A stretch of DNA of 64,000 nt, from IMG/VR virus record IMGVR_UViG_3300044470_000123, positions 1 to 64,000 of that record; one strand, 5' to 3'. The position numbers and the translations under genes are program-made. The notes under the pieces were generated by a model, which worked only from the letters and a program-made list of their open reading frames with translations, was not told the DNA's origin and ran no database searches. Below, piece by piece: positions 41,824 to 64,000 of this stretch. This DNA comes from a virus. How positions within the stretch are numbered: the stretch's first letter is position 1; each line of letters starts with the position of its first letter.

Positions 41824-43224
41824 TTATATGATATATTGTATAGATAATTTAAATATTGATTTTGTATGAAATACTTTTTTTACTGATTTTTTAATATTAA
41901 AATCAATTTTATTTATCCCGTTAAAACAACGAACAGATCTTCCACAATGATGACTACCATTAACCACATATTTTTTACTGTTAATTGTAACTGTATCGTA
42001 AGGCTGTATAGAATATCTATGCCTTCTAATAGATGGTTTAAAACCTTTCCTATTTAACTGTATTATTCTATTATTTTTATGTTTTTGCTTAAAATATGTA
42101 GGATTAATTCTAATCTGATTAGTACCTCCTGCTATAACAAATGCATCATTATAATGGGTCTTTTCTAATCCTAACTCATTCCTATTAACAAAAGTCTCAT
42201 ATCCGTAAACTATCTTACAGTTTGGTAATATTTTTTTATATATGTGTTGAACTATTGTCATAAACGCAGCGTCTTTATATTGTTTATTCCTCTTAAGAGT
42301 GTCAAATAATTTATTTTTATGAAGTTTATCATGACATTTTTCATGCAATAAAGCTAAATTATCTTGCTTATTAGGGCCACCTTTAGATCTAGGTATAATG
42401 TGATGTATATGAGAGGAATTACCTTTACTAAACTCTTTATTACATAGCTGGCACTTTCCTTTTTCTCTGGCCATCAAATAAATTCTCATGTTTTGATACT
42501 CATACATGGGTCCTTGTTGGTACTCTAATTTAGTTATTTTTTGATTTTCTATTTTCTGGATATCAAAATTTCCTACCTCTATAGTTATATCTTCCTCATT
42601 TATAGGAAATCTTAATCTCAGTTTATTGATAAAATTTATATGAGTGTTAAACTTCCTTTTAATTGATGGGGCTAACCAACCTTTTGTTCTGGCGTTAGAT
42701 CTATTGTTGTGTCTAGCCTCTCTATACCACATCTTATCTCTACGTCCACCTCGATACATACTTTTACTTATTAATCTTTCAGGAGTTTTCTGATCCAAAT
42801 AAACTTCTCCTGTAATTATCTCTTCATCTTTAGTTATAACAGAAAATCCTATCTTCTTAGAGCCTGAGTCTATTCCAAAAGAATACTTCTTAACAGTTTC
42901 TCCTGTAGCCTTATTAAGTTGAATAGTAAAGAATAACCCGTTTTCTACGACATGTGCCTCTCCTTTTTTAAGTAGCTTTCTAGCCTTGCAGGGACTGCAA
43001 GGCTCAAGAGGTTTACCCCTCTTATTGAGTACACAAACTTTGGCAAATACCCTCAGGTCTTGCCCCTCTTTGTGTTGAGGTGGATCCACTTCGAGATTGT
43101 TTAAAGTCAGTACTTTGCTCGCCACACTGAGACTTTCGTCTCTGTTTAATGGCATGCTTGTAGAGCTACAGACTTGTGGAGCATCCGTAGGTACGTACTT
43201 TAACTTTCCTTTAAACTGCTGCAT
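41824..43224 (-). CDS. iscB: RNA-guided nuclease IscB (RuvC-HNH, Cas9 ancestor family)
   Basis: This 466-residue protein shows every IscB landmark in order: PLMP-type motif (VLNKRGKPLEPCSPCKARKL, 65-84), RuvC-I GIDSGSK (Asp119), Arg-rich bridge helix (157-180, MYRGGRRDKMWYREARHNNR), RuvC-II ITIEVGNFD (Glu216), HNH zinc motif (C258xxC261, H274-H275, C297) and RuvC-III THYNDAFVIAGG (His357, Asp360). All catalytic residues are present, so it is probably active. Family members cut DNA under guidance from an omega RNA encoded just upstream. The start is uncertain: the first 55 or so residues are unlike other IscBs and overlap likely RNA structure. M24, V34 (GTG) and V46 (GTG) are alternatives, but only the first ATG has AAAAGG before it. 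No TnpA gene lies nearby, so it is probably a stand-alone homing element. Confidence 0.9.
   Translation of the reverse strand: MQQFKGKLKYVPTDAPQVCSSTSMPLNRDESLSVASKVLTLNNLEVDPPQHKEGQDLRVFAKVCVLNKRGKPLEPCSPCKARKLLKKGEAHVVENGLFFTIQLNKATGETVKKYSFGIDSGSKKIGFSVITKDEEIITGEVYLDQKTPERLISKSMYRGGRRDKMWYREARHNNRSNARTKGWLAPSIKRKFNTHINFINKLRLRFPINEEDITIEVGNFDIQKIENQKITKLEYQQGPMYEYQNMRIYLMAREKGKCQLCNKEFSKGNSSHIHHIIPRSKGGPNKQDNLALLHEKCHDKLHKNKLFDTLKRNKQYKDAAFMTIVQHIYKKILPNCKIVYGYETFVNRNELGLEKTHYNDAFVIAGGTNQIRINPTYFKQKHKNNRIIQLNRKGFKPSIRRHRYSIQPYDTVTINSKKYVVNGSHHCGRSVRCFNGINKIDFNIKKSVKKVFHTKSIFKLSIQYII
42982..43004 (-). repeat. 10-bp perfect hairpin inside the iscB PLMP coding region
   Basis: AGCCTTGCAG and CTGCAAGGCT form a 10-bp perfect inverted repeat with a 3-nt loop inside codons for the PLEPCSPCKA motif. 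Such a strong stem in coding sequence may extend the omega RNA into the frame, lower translation, or just reflect the two Cys codons. The last is possible because both arms encode Pro/Cys and Cys/Lys. Confidence 0.5.
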
Positions 43225-43331
43225 AAAAGTTTACCTTTTAAGCCCTCTAATCAACTCTTACCCAGAACCTCACGGTTCTAACCATTTTAGATACTTTTAA
43301 AGTGGCAATTGACATGGGAGGTGTTGACATT
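43129..43331 (-). ncRNA. Candidate IscB omega RNA (HEARO-type) upstream of and overlapping iscB
   Basis: The minus strand from about 43331 starts ATGTCAACACC and contains short stems: ACTTT/AAAGT, then AGAACC-GTGA-GGTTCT with a GNRA tetraloop at 43264-43279, and GAGAC-GAAA-GTCTC with a second GNRA loop at 43129-43142, which lies within the first 32 codons of the long iscB frame. Family knowledge: IscB nucleases use an RNA encoded directly 5' of the gene, with its guide at the 5' end. The guide would then be the bases just 5' of the scaffold, within about 43332-43350 (AT-rich). The exact ends are not determined. Confidence 0.55.
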
Positions 43332-43499
43332 ATAAAAAAACTAATAATAAACTAAGAAAGAATAGTTTCCAGAAGAAAATAGAAGATTAAAATTTTATAT
43401 TTTATTATATAAAAAATATAAGATATGATATTTTATATGAATTTTACTGGAAAACTTTTCATTTCACAATACCTAAATTTTCACATTAACTATTAAAAC

Positions 43500-44219
43500 T
43501 TAACCTTGTGAACTTTGTGTTAAATACTTTGAAACAGCAACTGGATTAAATAAATCTGTTCCGTTTATAAGAGGCACAGTTTCGTCATAAACTAATAGCT
43601 GCTCAGCTACTATGTCTGTGACATTTACTGTTACGTCTTCTTGTACAAGAGCAGTATCAGAAGCAAATGAAACGCTCCAGTCTGACATCCAACAAGCTTC
43701 ATACCAAGTTACTACAGCCCTAAGATCCATAGGATTCCCTGTTAAATCAATAGAACTGCTGCCGCCTGTAGGAGTACTTACACCACCATCCTGATTGAAA
43801 GTAGATCCACCACTAGTAAAATCCATAGCTAAAGCACCTACAATAAGTTCTTGTCTAAGATCAAAAGGGTACTTATGATGTCGAAGGGATCTTACTAGCC
43901 CATCTACCCCTCCACGATAACCAAATACCTGCATAATCATAGACAAGTACTGGGCTGTACGAGTGATAGTAATACTCATAGGATCTGTCATACCAGGAAC
44001 GAGCTCCATAACCTTATCGCCATAACCTATCCCTCTAACAGGCTCTATAGTGCGGCCTTCTGAAGGATTAAAGTTAGCAACTACGCCTATCTGCGTACCA
44101 CCATCAGAATCATCTCCTGATGTTATAGCATATAATCTATTTCTGGCGCTTACTACTGAAAAAGTTTCAGGAGTCACACCTCTCTGGTTTTCAACATATG
44201 TTTGACCTACATTAGACAT
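43500..44219 (-). CDS. Tail tube protein
   Basis: This 239-residue protein has motifs of myoviral tube proteins: GIGYGDKVMELVPGMTDPMS then ITITRTAQYLSMIMQVF, a YPFDLRQEL turn and a WYEACWMSDWSVSFASDTAL strand before VQEDVTVNVT. The tube fold is a beta sandwich that stacks as hexamers inside the sheath. The size is in the usual range. It lies downstream of the sheath gene and upstream of the chaperone genes, the canonical tube position apart from the iscB insertion 275 nt beyond. A strong Shine-Dalgarno (AAGGAGACACT) precedes the ATG. Confidence 0.8.
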   Translation of the reverse strand: MSNVGQTYVENQRGVTPETFSVVSARNRLYAITSGDDSDGGTQIGVVANFNPSEGRTIEPVRGIGYGDKVMELVPGMTDPMSITITRTAQYLSMIMQVFGYRGGVDGLVRSLRHHKYPFDLRQELIVGALAMDFTSGGSTFNQDGGVSTPTGGSSSIDLTGNPMDLRAVVTWYEACWMSDWSVSFASDTALVQEDVTVNVTDIVAEQLLVYDETVPLINGTDLFNPVAVSKYLTQSSQG

Positions 44220-51404: not shown

Positions 51405-52742
51405 TTAGTAAAACTCACCATGCTTTCTACAGATAATACAAACAGGAGTGTGCATATCAATATATTCTACTTTTGAGTAATCATATTCTCCTTTAAAATG
51501 TACTTTTTCAGCTCTGGTAATAAACTCTGAACTAGTAAGACTGTTATTTTCATAAGCACAAGCGTTGCATCCATATTTTTGCAAATGAAGTGTTGGTGTT
51601 TGAAAAAAATCTCCATGTTTTTTACATGTTATACAAACTTTTTTATTTGTTTTAATGTAATCTACTTTTGAATAAATATAGGTATCTTTACCGTGTATAA
51701 TTTTTGATTTTTTTATAAACTCCTCTGTATTTGAAGAATTTACAGAAGAAATTATCTCTAAAGCACATTTTTGGCAACCTCTTCCGTTTAGGTGTGAATC
51801 TGCTTTCTGCCAAAATTCACCGTGTTTTTCACATAATATACAAATTTTTGACTTACTGCCAGTATAGTTTGTTTTTAAATAAGTATACCTATTTTTATGT
51901 ACTTTTTTTGCTTTTTCTATATACTCTTCTGTAGTTACTGTACTATCTACCCTAACACATACGGGACAATCTTGACCGGACAAATGATTACCAGGAGTTT
52001 GCAAAAACTCTCCGTGAATAAGACATCTTATACAGACTTTCTTATCAGATCCTATATAATTTACTTTACTATATTCATATCTATTACCGTGAACTATTGT
52101 AGCTTTTTTTATAAATTTTTCTTTAGCATCTAAAATCCTTCTATTACTGTATTCCTCTGTAGCACACCTAAAGCATCCATTTTTATTTAAATGACTACTA
52201 GGGCACTGCATAAATTCTCCATGTACCTTACATATAATACAAACTTTATCTACAGTATTAATATAAACTACTTTATCATAGATATATCTATCTCCGTGCA
52301 CACTTATTGCTTTACTTATAAATTCTCCTGTTGTCATTGTTCTAGTTTTACTACCATCTATAGGACATCCGCTACCATTCAAATGATTTGAAGGAATCTG
52401 CATAAATTCACCGTGCTTTTTACATACTATACAAACCGGTACAAAACTACCATAATATTTAACTTTTGAATAATCGTACTTATTTCCATGAATAGAAATA
52501 GCTTCCTTTATAAAATCATTTTTTGTCTTCATTTTTTTAATACTTCTATTATTTATATCACATTTTTTACATTTAGAACCTACTAAATGACTGTACGGGG
52601 CTTGTAAAAAATCTCCGTGTATTCTACATGTAATTATTATTTTTATACAGGCTCCTAAATATTCTACTTTATCATAAATATACCTATCCCCGTGTTTAGC
52701 TCTTGCTCTTTCTATAAATTTTTCAGTCGTAAATTTTTGCAT
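51405..52742 (-). CDS. Zinc-ribbon repeat homing-endonuclease-like protein, N-terminal part (ends at an in-frame stop)
   Basis: This 445-residue frame holds six full copies and the start of a seventh of a repeat of about 65 residues: (E)FIxKAxxVHGxRYxYxKVxY, then KVCIxCxxHGEFxQ-P..HL.G.GCxxC. Each has two CxxC-type zinc knuckles. Such arrays occur in phage and giant-virus DNA-binding nucleases and probably set DNA contact. It stops inside HGEFY with TAA, where other copies have Trp/Phe-Gln; CAA to TAA is a single change. AGGAGAAGAAGGT precedes the ATG, downstream of a structured leader. Probably a free-standing homing endonuclease between virion genes; the intact gene would give about 716 residues. 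Confidence 0.75.
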   Translation of the reverse strand: MQKFTTEKFIERARAKHGDRYIYDKVEYLGACIKIIITCRIHGDFLQAPYSHLVGSKCKKCDINNRSIKKMKTKNDFIKEAISIHGNKYDYSKVKYYGSFVPVCIVCKKHGEFMQIPSNHLNGSGCPIDGSKTRTMTTGEFISKAISVHGDRYIYDKVVYINTVDKVCIICKVHGEFMQCPSSHLNKNGCFRCATEEYSNRRILDAKEKFIKKATIVHGNRYEYSKVNYIGSDKKVCIRCLIHGEFLQTPGNHLSGQDCPVCVRVDSTVTTEEYIEKAKKVHKNRYTYLKTNYTGSKSKICILCEKHGEFWQKADSHLNGRGCQKCALEIISSVNSSNTEEFIKKSKIIHGKDTYIYSKVDYIKTNKKVCITCKKHGDFFQTPTLHLQKYGCNACAYENNSLTSSEFITRAEKVHFKGEYDYSKVEYIDMHTPVCIICRKHGEFY

Positions 52743-60285: not shown

Positions 60286-62574
60286 TTAAATTTTCTGCCA
60301 GACTAATAAAACTTCAGCAGCTGTAATATCTTTTCTTCTTGTTGAAGTGAACCAATACATAGTATCTTTTTCTAATAAAGTAGTCTTAGGAAGATACTCT
60401 TTAAGATATCTTGGAATATTTAATACAAAATATCCTTTTGATTTTAGTGCCTTTTCAGCATATATAAATATATTTTTTATAAGTGTTTCCCATTGATTTT
60501 TATCCATTGGCTTTCCATATACTTCTAAATCTATGTATGGCGGTGAAGTCATAATAAGATCACAAGCTACCGGTGCGGTATTTAAATAAAAATCAGAATT
60601 TATTATATGTGCTTTATCTTTTAAACCATAGTAGTCTATAATACTATTTAATCCTTTAGCAGTTTTATCCCAAGGTTCAAATCCACAATAGTTTCTATTA
60701 GCAGATACAGTACCTAATAATCTGCCTCCCCAACCTGCACAGGGGTCTACTACAGTATCTCCAACTTTAGAGTATCTTTCTACAATAGCTTTTGCTACAC
60801 TACACGGGAATCCAGTTACTCCCCCATTAAAGTATACCAAACTTTTATATAAAAAATCCGGCAAAATAGTTTTATTAGCTTTATAAGTGTATATTAAAGC
60901 TGATCTTAGTGCTGTAAAATTATTGAATGTGCTAAAAGGTGATACACCTTTATATTTAGATTCTACCATATGAGGCATAAAATTTTTGAATATTTTATTA
61001 CCTGCGCTTAGATACCTTATAACATTATTATTTTTCCAGATATAACTAGTATTTAGTTCACACATACTCTCATATTCTTTATTAAGATAATCTTCATTTA
61101 TATTAAAATAAGGAAATCCTCTTTTTTGATAATATTCCGTAACTCTATTCCATATATACTCATATTTTTCTGCTATGTAACTATTAATTAAACAAAGATC
61201 AAAATCATTTTCTACTTTAACATCAAATAACTCTGGTAAATGTTGTTTCCAAAAAGACCCTACTTCAGAAGCATCTGGTACTTTATCAGCCATGCACGGT
61301 ATAAGATACTTTGGATTTATCCCTTCCACTCTTACTGTTGATTCATTTTCTAATTTTAGTTTTTCTCGAAATATGTATCTATTCTCAAATTTAGAGATAT
61401 ATTCCTTTTTCATACTCATATCAGTACTACTGCCAAAATAGAAACCGTCATCCATATAATAGCAAGCCCATCCTAGTTCAGTTAGTTCTGAAAATATCTT
61501 TTCTAAATTTTTTGTCCCGTTCTCGTTTATGTATTTGTTATAATCTCCTATATTTGGGCAAGATATACCTAGTTGTTCTATACCTCCAAAAATCATGAGT
61601 TTTTCAGTTGATGAAAAATGTGAGGCAGGTACCGTTACAATATTTGAAACACTGTTATATAAAACCTGTCTTTTTAGATATAAATATGATAATTGTTTTA
61701 AACTGTGATTGGTTACAAAACGCCCATATTCATCTAGATGCCCGTCTCCTGCTAGCCAACCAAGAATACATTGATGCCTTTCTTCTTGAGATAATTCAAA
61801 ACTTGGTTTAGGTAAATTTAGTAAATAGTCTCTTAAATATTCTAAATTTTTAGACCATAGCCTTCTATCATCTAAAATTTCAAGATTATTTTCTTTAAAT
61901 TTTCTTTTAACAACAGTACTAGATATACCTATTTCTTCACACAGTCCTTTCATACTAATTTTTGATTTAATTTTATCATCTAACCAATCTTTATCTATAG
62001 TATCAAATTTATTACTAACCTCATTAACTAGATATTTTCTTAAACTAACAAGACCTATTTTCTTAATATAGGTTAAAATAATATCATCAGATATATAAAC
62101 TCCTAATTCCTTATTTAATATATTACTTATGTCTGATATTCTGTTTCCATCTTCTATCAATTTTTTAGCGTAGTCGTAGGATAGATGACTATAAAGCCAC
62201 TCTTCTTTAGAAGGAAACTTACAATCTACTTTATTTATTAGATGATATTCTATGGTATGTGGAAGGGCATCAAAATTATGCTGTTCTTTAAGTACCTTAC
62301 TAATTTCTTCAGAATACATTAATTTATTAATTCTTAGATCTACTGCTATTTTAGTCATTTCCTCTGACCAAATTGTCTCTTCTTTGATTTCTCTTTTGTT
62401 CTCTAAAAAACCTTTTTTCTTTAATATACTAATCTGTCTTTTTATCCAACGAGGGGATTCATTTAATTTTGCGGCTAGCTCTGGGCGAGTGAGTGTAGAG
62501 AAGTTGTCTATTATGAATGATAACTTCTCTACAGATTTTCTATCGGCAGTAATTCCTTTTGTGGGACCTGACAT
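60286..62574 (-). CDS. LAGLIDADG homing endonuclease fused to a DNA methyltransferase
   Basis: This 762-residue protein has three parts. Residues 1-250 hold helix-turn-helix segments (LTRPELAAKLNESPRWIKRQ; ISMKGLCEEIGISSTVVKRK). Residues 265-480 are a LAGLIDADG endonuclease with motif 1 CILGWLAGDGHL (269-280) and motif 2 LGWACYYMDDGFYFG (about 367-381). Residues 560-762 are an amino-methyltransferase with motif I VVDPCAGWGGRLLG (608-621) and motif IV TSPPY (676-680), an N4-cytosine/N6-adenine type. No intein ends (Cys/Ser start, His-Asn end) are seen, so this is a fusion rather than an intein. A host-type promoter lies upstream, unlike its neighbours. Confidence 0.8.
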   Translation of the reverse strand: MSGPTKGITADRKSVEKLSFIIDNFSTLTRPELAAKLNESPRWIKRQISILKKKGFLENKREIKEETIWSEEMTKIAVDLRINKLMYSEEISKVLKEQHNFDALPHTIEYHLINKVDCKFPSKEEWLYSHLSYDYAKKLIEDGNRISDISNILNKELGVYISDDIILTYIKKIGLVSLRKYLVNEVSNKFDTIDKDWLDDKIKSKISMKGLCEEIGISSTVVKRKFKENNLEILDDRRLWSKNLEYLRDYLLNLPKPSFELSQEERHQCILGWLAGDGHLDEYGRFVTNHSLKQLSYLYLKRQVLYNSVSNIVTVPASHFSSTEKLMIFGGIEQLGISCPNIGDYNKYINENGTKNLEKIFSELTELGWACYYMDDGFYFGSSTDMSMKKEYISKFENRYIFREKLKLENESTVRVEGINPKYLIPCMADKVPDASEVGSFWKQHLPELFDVKVENDFDLCLINSYIAEKYEYIWNRVTEYYQKRGFPYFNINEDYLNKEYESMCELNTSYIWKNNNVIRYLSAGNKIFKNFMPHMVESKYKGVSPFSTFNNFTALRSALIYTYKANKTILPDFLYKSLVYFNGGVTGFPCSVAKAIVERYSKVGDTVVDPCAGWGGRLLGTVSANRNYCGFEPWDKTAKGLNSIIDYYGLKDKAHIINSDFYLNTAPVACDLIMTSPPYIDLEVYGKPMDKNQWETLIKNIFIYAEKALKSKGYFVLNIPRYLKEYLPKTTLLEKDTMYWFTSTRRKDITAAEVLLVWQKI

Positions 62575-62654: not shown

Positions 62655-64000
62655 TTAAGACCATCCTCCTCTACTTCCGCTTGCGAAATTACGCCTTGAC
62701 TGAGTACCTGGACGTGAAAAAGGGCCAAGTGATGAACTTATGCCTATCCCATAACGTGGCTGATTTAATCCTTTTATTATCTTTATCGAACGTTTAATTA
62801 ACTCTCTAGATTTTTCCCATTCCGCTAGAAAATTATCTTTCATTGCTTCATACTTTGAAGATTTCTCTATGTCAAGGGATACTCCAGAAATTGAATAACT
62901 ATTGTGGGCTAAAATTCCAGAGTCAAGTACAAAATTTTCTGCAGCAGGTACTGAAAAATCATAGGTTTTATTTTGGGGTTCTATTTCTTCTTTTTGGACT
63001 ATTTCTATAGGTTCAAATTTGTCTGAAAATTCTAAACCTACTATTTTATCTCCTACTTTTAAATCTTTAGTCTTAATAGGTTCTTTTGTGTCCCATAAAA
63101 ATAAACTATGATCTTCTGTAACTTCAATTGAGTTAATTTCTGTACTTATTCTAAACATTTTCTTTTGAGAGGTATTATGCTGCATAAAATTAGAAACAGG
63201 GACCCACTCTAGTTTTTCCGACTTATTAACCATGGCTTGAACTTCAAGTGTTCCGTTAAAAAAAGATTTTTTTATCTTTTCCTTATTAATTTCTCTTATT
63301 CTTTCTTGTAAACTTTTTATAGCTTCTATACCTACATAAGGATCTTTTTTTATGTCATGTTCCTTAATCCTTATAATAGTCCAACCTCTGTTCTTAAGAA
63401 AAGTTTCTTTTCTTTTATCTATCTCTATTATCCTTTTATTTCCTTCAAAACCACAAGATTTACATCCGTGCCAATAACAGCCATCTACCTCTACTGCTAT
63501 TTTTGCTAAAGGATCCGCTTCATCTATAGAATAAAATCTATATGTATACTCTGTAACAAAACCAGTCAATCCTCTTTCTTGCATTTTTTCTTTATAGGTT
63601 AAATGTACTGAGCTTGTTTTTTGCATCATTTTTCTTGCCCTTGCTGCTGATTTATCAAGAGCCTCTTTATTATCTTTAACGTATTGTTTGTTTTTTTCTC
63701 TAAACTCCGGGTCTGACCACATTTTTTTAGATTGTTTCCTATGAAGCTCTATAATTTCAGGTCTGTTTTGATACTCTATAGCCCACTCACTTCTTTTTTT
63801 TAAAAATTCTGGATCAGAGTTAAGTTTTATACTAGCAATTTTTATTTGTTCTCTAGTTATTTCTCCTTCAGAAGTTTGAAATCTTTTTTTAAGGGTCTCT
63901 GATTGTTTCTGTTTTCTTTTTTCAGAGTGCTTTATTTGTTCATTATATACTCTAGAACAAATTCTTATCCTATCATTATTCTCTAATTTATCACAATAAT
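62655..64000 (-). CDS. Intein-containing virion protein, C-terminal part (partial at right edge)
   Basis: The frame is open to the right edge and ends at 62655; at least 448 residues are visible. The first 85 or so are basic helices with NUMOD-like repeats (NSDPEFLKKRSEW, WSDPEFREKNKQY). A Vsr-like nuclease follows (KIAVEVDGCYWHGC, then FLKNRGWTIIRIKEHDI). Next is an intein splicing part: NGTLEVQAMV, TEDHSLF (block B) and AAENFVLDSGILAHN|S (block G, with Ser as +1). The C-extein is 84 residues (SYSISGVSLDIEKSSKYEAM to the end SGSRGGWS) and is not identified, though it is likely a capsid- or neck-side virion protein. Intein block A lies beyond the edge. Confidence 0.75.
   Translation of the reverse strand, partial: YCDKLENNDRIRICSRVYNEQIKHSEKRKQKQSETLKKRFQTSEGEITREQIKIASIKLNSDPEFLKKRSEWAIEYQNRPEIIELHRKQSKKMWSDPEFREKNKQYVKDNKEALDKSAARARKMMQKTSSVHLTYKEKMQERGLTGFVTEYTYRFYSIDEADPLAKIAVEVDGCYWHGCKSCGFEGNKRIIEIDKRKETFLKNRGWTIIRIKEHDIKKDPYVGIEAIKSLQERIREINKEKIKKSFFNGTLEVQAMVNKSEKLEWVPVSNFMQHNTSQKKMFRISTEINSIEVTEDHSLFLWDTKEPIKTKDLKVGDKIVGLEFSDKFEPIEIVQKEEIEPQNKTYDFSVPAAENFVLDSGILAHNSYSISGVSLDIEKSSKYEAMKDNFLAEWEKSRELIKRSIKIIKGLNQPRYGIGISSSLGPFSRPGTQSRRNFASGSRGGWS

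What the first reader, a model, noticed from the sequence alone, without database searches (positions are those of the whole stretch)
41824..43331. RNA-guided IscB nuclease inserted in the tail operon of a large phage
A full IscB with all RuvC and HNH catalytic residues (D119, E216, H274/H275, H357, D360) lies between the tail-tube and tail-chaperone genes, without a TnpA partner. IscB, the presumed ancestor of Cas9, is mainly known from IS200/605-like elements. Here it looks like a stand-alone homing element in a virion cassette, where cutting uninserted relatives would spread it. Alternatively it could be used against competing phages.
Basis: partly seen in the sequence, partly recalled or inferred. 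Interest (0 to 1): 0.85.

Follow-up and report, generated by a model that had tools for sequence, protein, structure and literature searches.

The report
RNA-guided homing nuclease in phage tail operon
A large phage carries a complete Cas9-ancestor nuclease (IscB) with its own guide RNA, slotted between two tail genes where most related phages have nothing, so it looks like a selfish cutter that spreads between phages; its guide RNA also overlaps the start of its own gene.

Summary
Window 41824-43224(-) is a complete IscB (NF040563 E=6e-80; all catalytic residues kept). It is preceded and overlapped by its guide RNA, HEARO/omegaRNA RF02033, at 43328-43080(-), 91 bits. No Y1 transposase (TnpA) lies in the 68-kb record. 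A second IscB, a GIY-YIG-like gene and a TnpB-omegaRNA-like remnant occupy the same gap in other relatives. IscB/IsrB genes also sit in the neighbouring tail junctions. L023 versus L022 gives a clean occupied/empty pair (94% identical right flank). Best reading: a stand-alone, RNA-guided homing element. Target cutting by this copy is not shown, and its exact guide is ambiguous.

New point: this IscB belongs to a group whose start codon lies inside the omegaRNA. The reading frame is open through it in all 13 members checked, but closed in ordinary HEARO. The leader shows RNA-type, not protein-type, constraint, so mRNA and guide RNA compete and self-regulation is likely. IscB in phages is known; this is a new variant of a known kind.

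The parts
43500..44219 (-). tail-tube-like gene, upstream neighbour (name from synteny)
   Evidence: 65% relative L018 next to the same sheath and chaperone-like genes; AF2 model uninformative
43329..43499 (-). AT-rich intergenic left flank of the element; collinear with the intergenic gap of empty relatives
43314..43329 (-). candidate guide (TGTCAACACCTCCCAT) if the scaffold begins at the second GTCAA copy; if Rfam's start at 43328 is right, the guide is instead 43329-43344 (TTAGTTTTTTTATAAT)
   Evidence: MFE fold and homologue spacing favour the second copy; no second match in the window, only 5 scattered matches in IMG/VR
43080..43328 (-). omegaRNA (HEARO, RF02033); scaffold start either 43328 (Rfam) or 43313 (fold)
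   Evidence: 91.2 bits, gathering score 83; fold z-score -2.15
43225..43249 (-). Shine-Dalgarno-like AAAGG in a hairpin of the omegaRNA whose 3' side leads into the start codon
   Evidence: same hairpin/start layout predicted in 12 of 12 subfamily members folded
41824..43224 (-). IscB, 466 aa; RuvC D119 (42868-42870), E216 (42577-42579), HNH H275 (42400-42402), RuvC H357 and D360 (42154-42156, 42145-42147)
43042..43224 (-). translated leader (residues 1-61) that overlaps the omegaRNA over 43080-43224; RNA-constrained and predicted unfolded
41824..41860 (-). approximate right end of the element; the IscB stop codon lies in flank-like sequence (ATATCATATAA) shared with the empty relative L018
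41236..41808 (-). 190-aa chaperone-like gene, downstream neighbour (name from synteny)
   Evidence: 46% homologue in L018 directly after the empty gap

Best explanation
A stand-alone OMEGA/IscB element (omegaRNA plus iscB, no transposase in the record) has inserted into the gap between the tail-tube-like and chaperone-like genes of a large phage and persists by RNA-guided homing. Proposed cycle: (1) SHOWN: omegaRNA and an intact-looking IscB are encoded together, and the site is empty in most relatives. (2) INFERRED from the known IscB mechanism: the 13-16 nt directly 5' of the omegaRNA scaffold, copied from the left flank, guide IscB to the uninterrupted site of a co-infecting relative, next to a motif in the right flank. 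In the occupied copy the element separates guide match and motif, so it is immune. (3) INFERRED: the cut is repaired from the occupied genome, which copies the element. (4) INFERRED: because the start codon and ribosome site lie in the omegaRNA, each transcript serves either as mRNA or as guide, and IscB binding to its own omegaRNA would shut off further translation. Entry into new sites needs another step (ectopic repair, or TnpA in trans).
For: IscB and omegaRNA. Empty sites: L018 at 65% tube identity and 66 of 72 loci with a gap of 253 bp or less. Convergent occupants of the same gap: second IscB plus an endonuclease-like ORF with zinc-finger motifs (L051), GIY-YIG-like ORF (L006), TnpB-omegaRNA-like 322-bp gap (L048). 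Neighbouring junctions: IscB after the chaperone in L023 with empty twin L022 (77/99 left, 94/100 right flank identity; right flank ATGGAA fits the IscB motif NWRGNA of PMC13180657) and an IsrB-like gene before the tube in G023/L155. Same subfamily at portal and other sites in other phages (L098, L100, L152, L153). The phage copies group together (100/100 for four, 95/89 for six). No Y1_Tnp in the record.
Against: No empty allele close enough to the window exists in the collections, so neither the guide nor the boundaries can be fixed to the base, and guide = left flank is not directly verified for this copy. The candidate guide is GC-richer than the empty gap of L018. Elements sit at many sites with different flanks, which homing alone does not explain. 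No expression, cleavage or transfer data.
Confidence: 0.7

Rival explanations
1. A transposon relic or non-autonomous IS200/605-type (ISC) element: moved by a TnpA elsewhere in the phage or host, with IscB only keeping it in place after excision.
For: Many unrelated insertion sites within one phage lineage; a Nodularia phage IscB sits beside an annotated IS607-family transposase; the record is a 68-kb fragment, so a TnpA could lie elsewhere.
Against: No Y1_Tnp in the record; HEARO/IscB are rarely beside TnpA (PMC9755519); GIY-YIG-like genes occupy the same gap.
Confidence: 0.25
2. A competition weapon: the phage keeps IscB to cut competing phages at a conserved tail region (as shown for an intron endonuclease of phage PhiPA3, PMC11620839).
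For: Placed in a conserved structural operon; a homing nuclease that cuts rivals gives this effect as a by-product.
Against: Patchy presence; the candidate guide matches nothing else in the window and only 5 scattered viral contigs, and the intergenic gap is poorly conserved, so few rivals could be targeted.
Confidence: 0.15
3. An exapted RNA-guided regulator of the tail operon rather than a cutter.
For: Lies inside the operon; the omegaRNA and start codon overlap suggests regulation.
Against: All RuvC and HNH catalytic residues are kept; relatives do without it.
Confidence: 0.05

Closest known systems
IscB / HEARO OMEGA nucleases (OgeuIscB, NCBIfam NF040563, RF02033)
   Same: Domain order PLMP-RuvC-bridge-HNH-RuvC-C-terminal, catalytic residues, HEARO RNA at the 5' side, fold
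   Different: The start codon lies inside the omegaRNA and the leader is translated through it; in ordinary HEARO that frame has 3-8 stops. Only about 21% sequence identity to OgeuIscB in the fold alignment
Stand-alone HEARO/IscB of Staphylococcus Silviavirus and other phages
   Same: TnpA-free HNH endonuclease gene with HEARO in a lytic phage
   Different: Different IscB clade, in the replication region near a RusA resolvase rather than the tail; no empty-site survey found in the literature searched
Free-standing phage homing endonucleases (GIY-YIG, HNH; T4 seg/mob type, from own knowledge)
   Same: Single genes inserted between conserved structural genes, absent from most relatives
   Different: Target choice by an RNA guide rather than by the protein
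TnpB as a gene drive of IS200/605 (PMC11870625)
   Same: RNA guide records the insertion site and cuts uninserted copies
   Different: IscB (Cas9-type), guide at the 5' end, in a virus, no TnpA found

Membership tests
IscB (OMEGA) | Split RuvC with inserted HNH and RRXRR bridge | tested here: met
   PF14239 E=3e-47, PF01844 E=2e-13, NF040563 over cut-off; Foldseek top hits IscB
IscB (OMEGA) | Catalytic residues of RuvC and HNH intact | tested here: met
   D119, E216, H274/H275, H357, D360 invariant in A5
IscB (OMEGA) | omegaRNA (HEARO) at the 5' side with a guide | tested here: met
   RF02033 91.2 bits; the guide itself is inferred
IscB (OMEGA) | RNA-guided DNA cleavage | not testable with these tools
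   needs biochemistry
IS200/605 (ISC) transposon | Y1 transposase TnpA in the element | tested here: not met
   no PF01797 match in the 68-kb record; the rest of the phage is unknown
Homing element | Empty sites in relatives | tested here: met
   66 of 72 loci; L018 empty
Homing element | Nuclease targets the uninserted site | tested here: inconclusive
   For L023 the 16 nt left of the element match the empty L022 at 14 of 16 and abut ATGGAA/ATGAAA; not decidable for the window copy
Homing element | Super-Mendelian inheritance in co-infection | not testable with these tools
   needs an experiment
Cas9 | Cas9-level score against a curated Cas9 model | tested here: not met
   NF049971 28.6 bits against cut-off 375

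The most novel reading that the evidence does not exclude
A clade of IscB (window, at least five further phage copies, and Desulfamplus, Paludibacter, Anoxychlamydiales and other relatives) has fused guide RNA and gene: the start codon and ribosome site lie in a hairpin of the omegaRNA, and the frame is kept open through it while the RNA, not the leader protein, is conserved. IscB would bind its own omegaRNA and switch off its own translation, a built-in dose control for an RNA-guided homing nuclease that repeatedly invades the tail operon of a huge-phage lineage.
Probability: 0.4. Interest if true: 0.8.

Novelty: new variant of a known kind. Interest (0 to 1): 0.62.

Why it matters
It gives natural occupied/empty pairs (L023/L022; window against L018) and repeated invasion of one virion operon by IscB, IsrB-like, GIY-YIG-like and TnpB-RNA-like elements. 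That makes it possible to test whether the ancestors of Cas9 act as RNA-guided homing endonucleases in viruses. The overlap of guide RNA and coding start suggests a simple way for a guide-RNA nuclease to control its own dose.

Tried and rejected
Tube structure by AF2: failed (pLDDT 41), so gene names rest on synteny. Scans with the IscB or the 190-aa protein alone found no viral relatives. A mixed IscB alignment was too divergent to scan. Search for other targets of the candidate guide: only 5 scattered IMG/VR matches and no second match in the window, so no specific rival target is claimed. The idea that residues 1-60 are a selected protein domain is rejected: no third-codon-position excess (62/86/67 differences against 652/497/1207 in the core) and pLDDT about 28. 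A later GTG start (V46, 43089) was considered: not conserved in L109, and it does not explain the open frame. The L048 remnant had no blastn match in phages. Relatives could not be drawn for a virus record; L007 (Tunturi_5) has a different gene after the tube and was not counted. Weinberg 2009 and Kapitonov 2016 are not held, so whether the overlap has been described before could not be fully checked; one search found nothing.

Full report
OBSERVATION. The window is part of a 68,105-bp IMG/VR virus record with no Y1 transposase.

EMPTY SITES. Tail-tube relatives were collected and the gap to the chaperone-like gene measured in 84 loci. Both genes were found in 72; in 66 the gap is 253 bp or less, including three contigs of the nearest relative (65% tube identity). 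These loci are not all independent (some are contigs of the same phage). Occupied or odd gaps: the window (1691 bp, IscB); L051 (2714 bp; IscB of the same subfamily with its own HEARO, plus an endonuclease-like ORF with zinc-finger motifs; L050 is another contig of that phage); L006 = LR745208 (1330 bp; GIY-YIG-like ORF, weak Pfam match E=0.009); L048 (322 bp with a sequence that looks by eye like a TnpB omegaRNA end); L071 (an intein-bearing gene); L084 (a second tube-like gene).

NEIGHBOURING JUNCTIONS. A search of whole records found IscB or HEARO in 6 of 32 near records. In L023 (record G006) a different-clade IscB lies directly after the chaperone-like gene; close relative L022 is empty there. 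The flanks match at 77/99 (left) and 94/100 (right), and the element lies between ...AGATTAAT and ATGGAAGTTAAAG, where L022 reads ...AGATTGAC-ATGAAAGTTAAAG. ATGGAA fits the motif NWRGNA reported as optimal for OgeuIscB variants (PMC13180657). In G023 an RRXRR protein without HNH (IsrB-like) lies just before the tube gene. So three successive junctions of this tail operon have been hit by IscB-family genes in related phages, by at least two IscB clades. Other copies of the window's subfamily lie after the portal-like gene (L098), in another structural cluster (L100, in the record whose tail gap is empty as L019), after a fibre-like gene (L152) and after a recombination-like gene (L153); one HEARO in that last record has no full IscB (L154).

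GUIDE. The 5' boundary is ambiguous because GTCAA occurs twice (43328 and 43313). Spacing to the next hairpin in homologues and the predicted fold favour 43313, giving guide TGTCAACACCTCCCAT; Rfam's start gives TTAGTTTTTTTATAAT. Neither finds another convincing target. No relative is close enough to check that the guide equals the pre-insertion flank. The right flank is recognisable: the stop codon of IscB lies in ATATCATATAA, shared with the empty relative.

OVERLAP OF GENE AND GUIDE RNA. The IscB core starts at residue 62-63, yet the frame runs open from an ATGCAG inside the omegaRNA. In all 13 subfamily members checked (phage, Desulfamplus, Paludibacter, Anoxychlamydiales, Thermoplasmata and others) this frame has no stop, while in those read in three frames the two others have several; in ordinary HEARO the same frame has 3-8 stops. 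The leader shows no third-position excess, unlike the core, and is predicted unfolded: the RNA is conserved, not the peptide. In 12 of 12 sequences folded, the start codon lies at the 3' foot of a hairpin whose stem sequence differs between members. The members form one group in the tree, but weakly (69/77). INFERENCE: translation and guide function compete, and IscB bound to the omegaRNA would block its own start.

MECHANISM AND RIVALS. Homing is the best reading (0.7): shown are the intact nuclease gene, the omegaRNA, the empty sites and repeated convergent occupation; inferred are cleavage and copying. It does not explain entry into new sites; TnpA in trans or ectopic repair is needed for that. 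A competition role is possible as a by-product (compare PMC11620839, seen) but has no specific support here.

NOVELTY. HEARO/IscB without TnpA is usual (PMC9755519), HEARO has been listed in Silviavirus genomes (PMC13346280), and several phage records encode stand-alone IscB. New here, as far as the searched library shows: the survey of empty and occupied sites, the clustering in one tail operon, and the omegaRNA-coding overlap. The founding papers were not readable, so the overlap may have been noted before.

Noticed in passing
L057 and L059, gap between tube-like and chaperone-like genes (L057 1482-1718; L059 7736-7988): Each gap holds a single CRISPR-repeat-like sequence (GTCGCTCCCCGGGAGCGTGGATTGAAA; GTCGCGTCCCATATGGGCGCGTGGATTGAAAC), reminiscent of solitary repeat units / RNA anti-CRISPRs.
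   Followed up: no
L048 6520-6841: 322-bp gap with a sequence that looks like the end of an IS200/605 TnpB omegaRNA; TnpB genes occur in 6 of 31 related records searched.
   Followed up: partly
L154 (G003 135500-141095), about 1955-2140: A complete-looking HEARO with only a truncated iscB start, in a record with two full IscB genes: possible lone omegaRNA acting in trans.
   Followed up: partly
window 51405-52742(-): Second mobile-type endonuclease (phrog_681, E=5e-89) in the structural region.
   Followed up: no
window 60286-62574(-) and 62655-63722(-): DNA methylase with a LAGLIDADG domain, and a DUF559-type endonuclease joined to a partial intein splicing domain.
   Followed up: no
tube-chaperone gaps of most relatives: Recurrent motif of the type ATAAGATTTAAATAACAAATAAGAT plus a GC-rich hairpin after the tube gene, seen even in distant, GC-rich members as (A)GATGTAGAT; function unknown.
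   Followed up: no
LR745208.1 279785-280237 (L011), L143, L155: RRXRR proteins without HNH (IsrB-like) in huge-phage relatives.
   Followed up: partly
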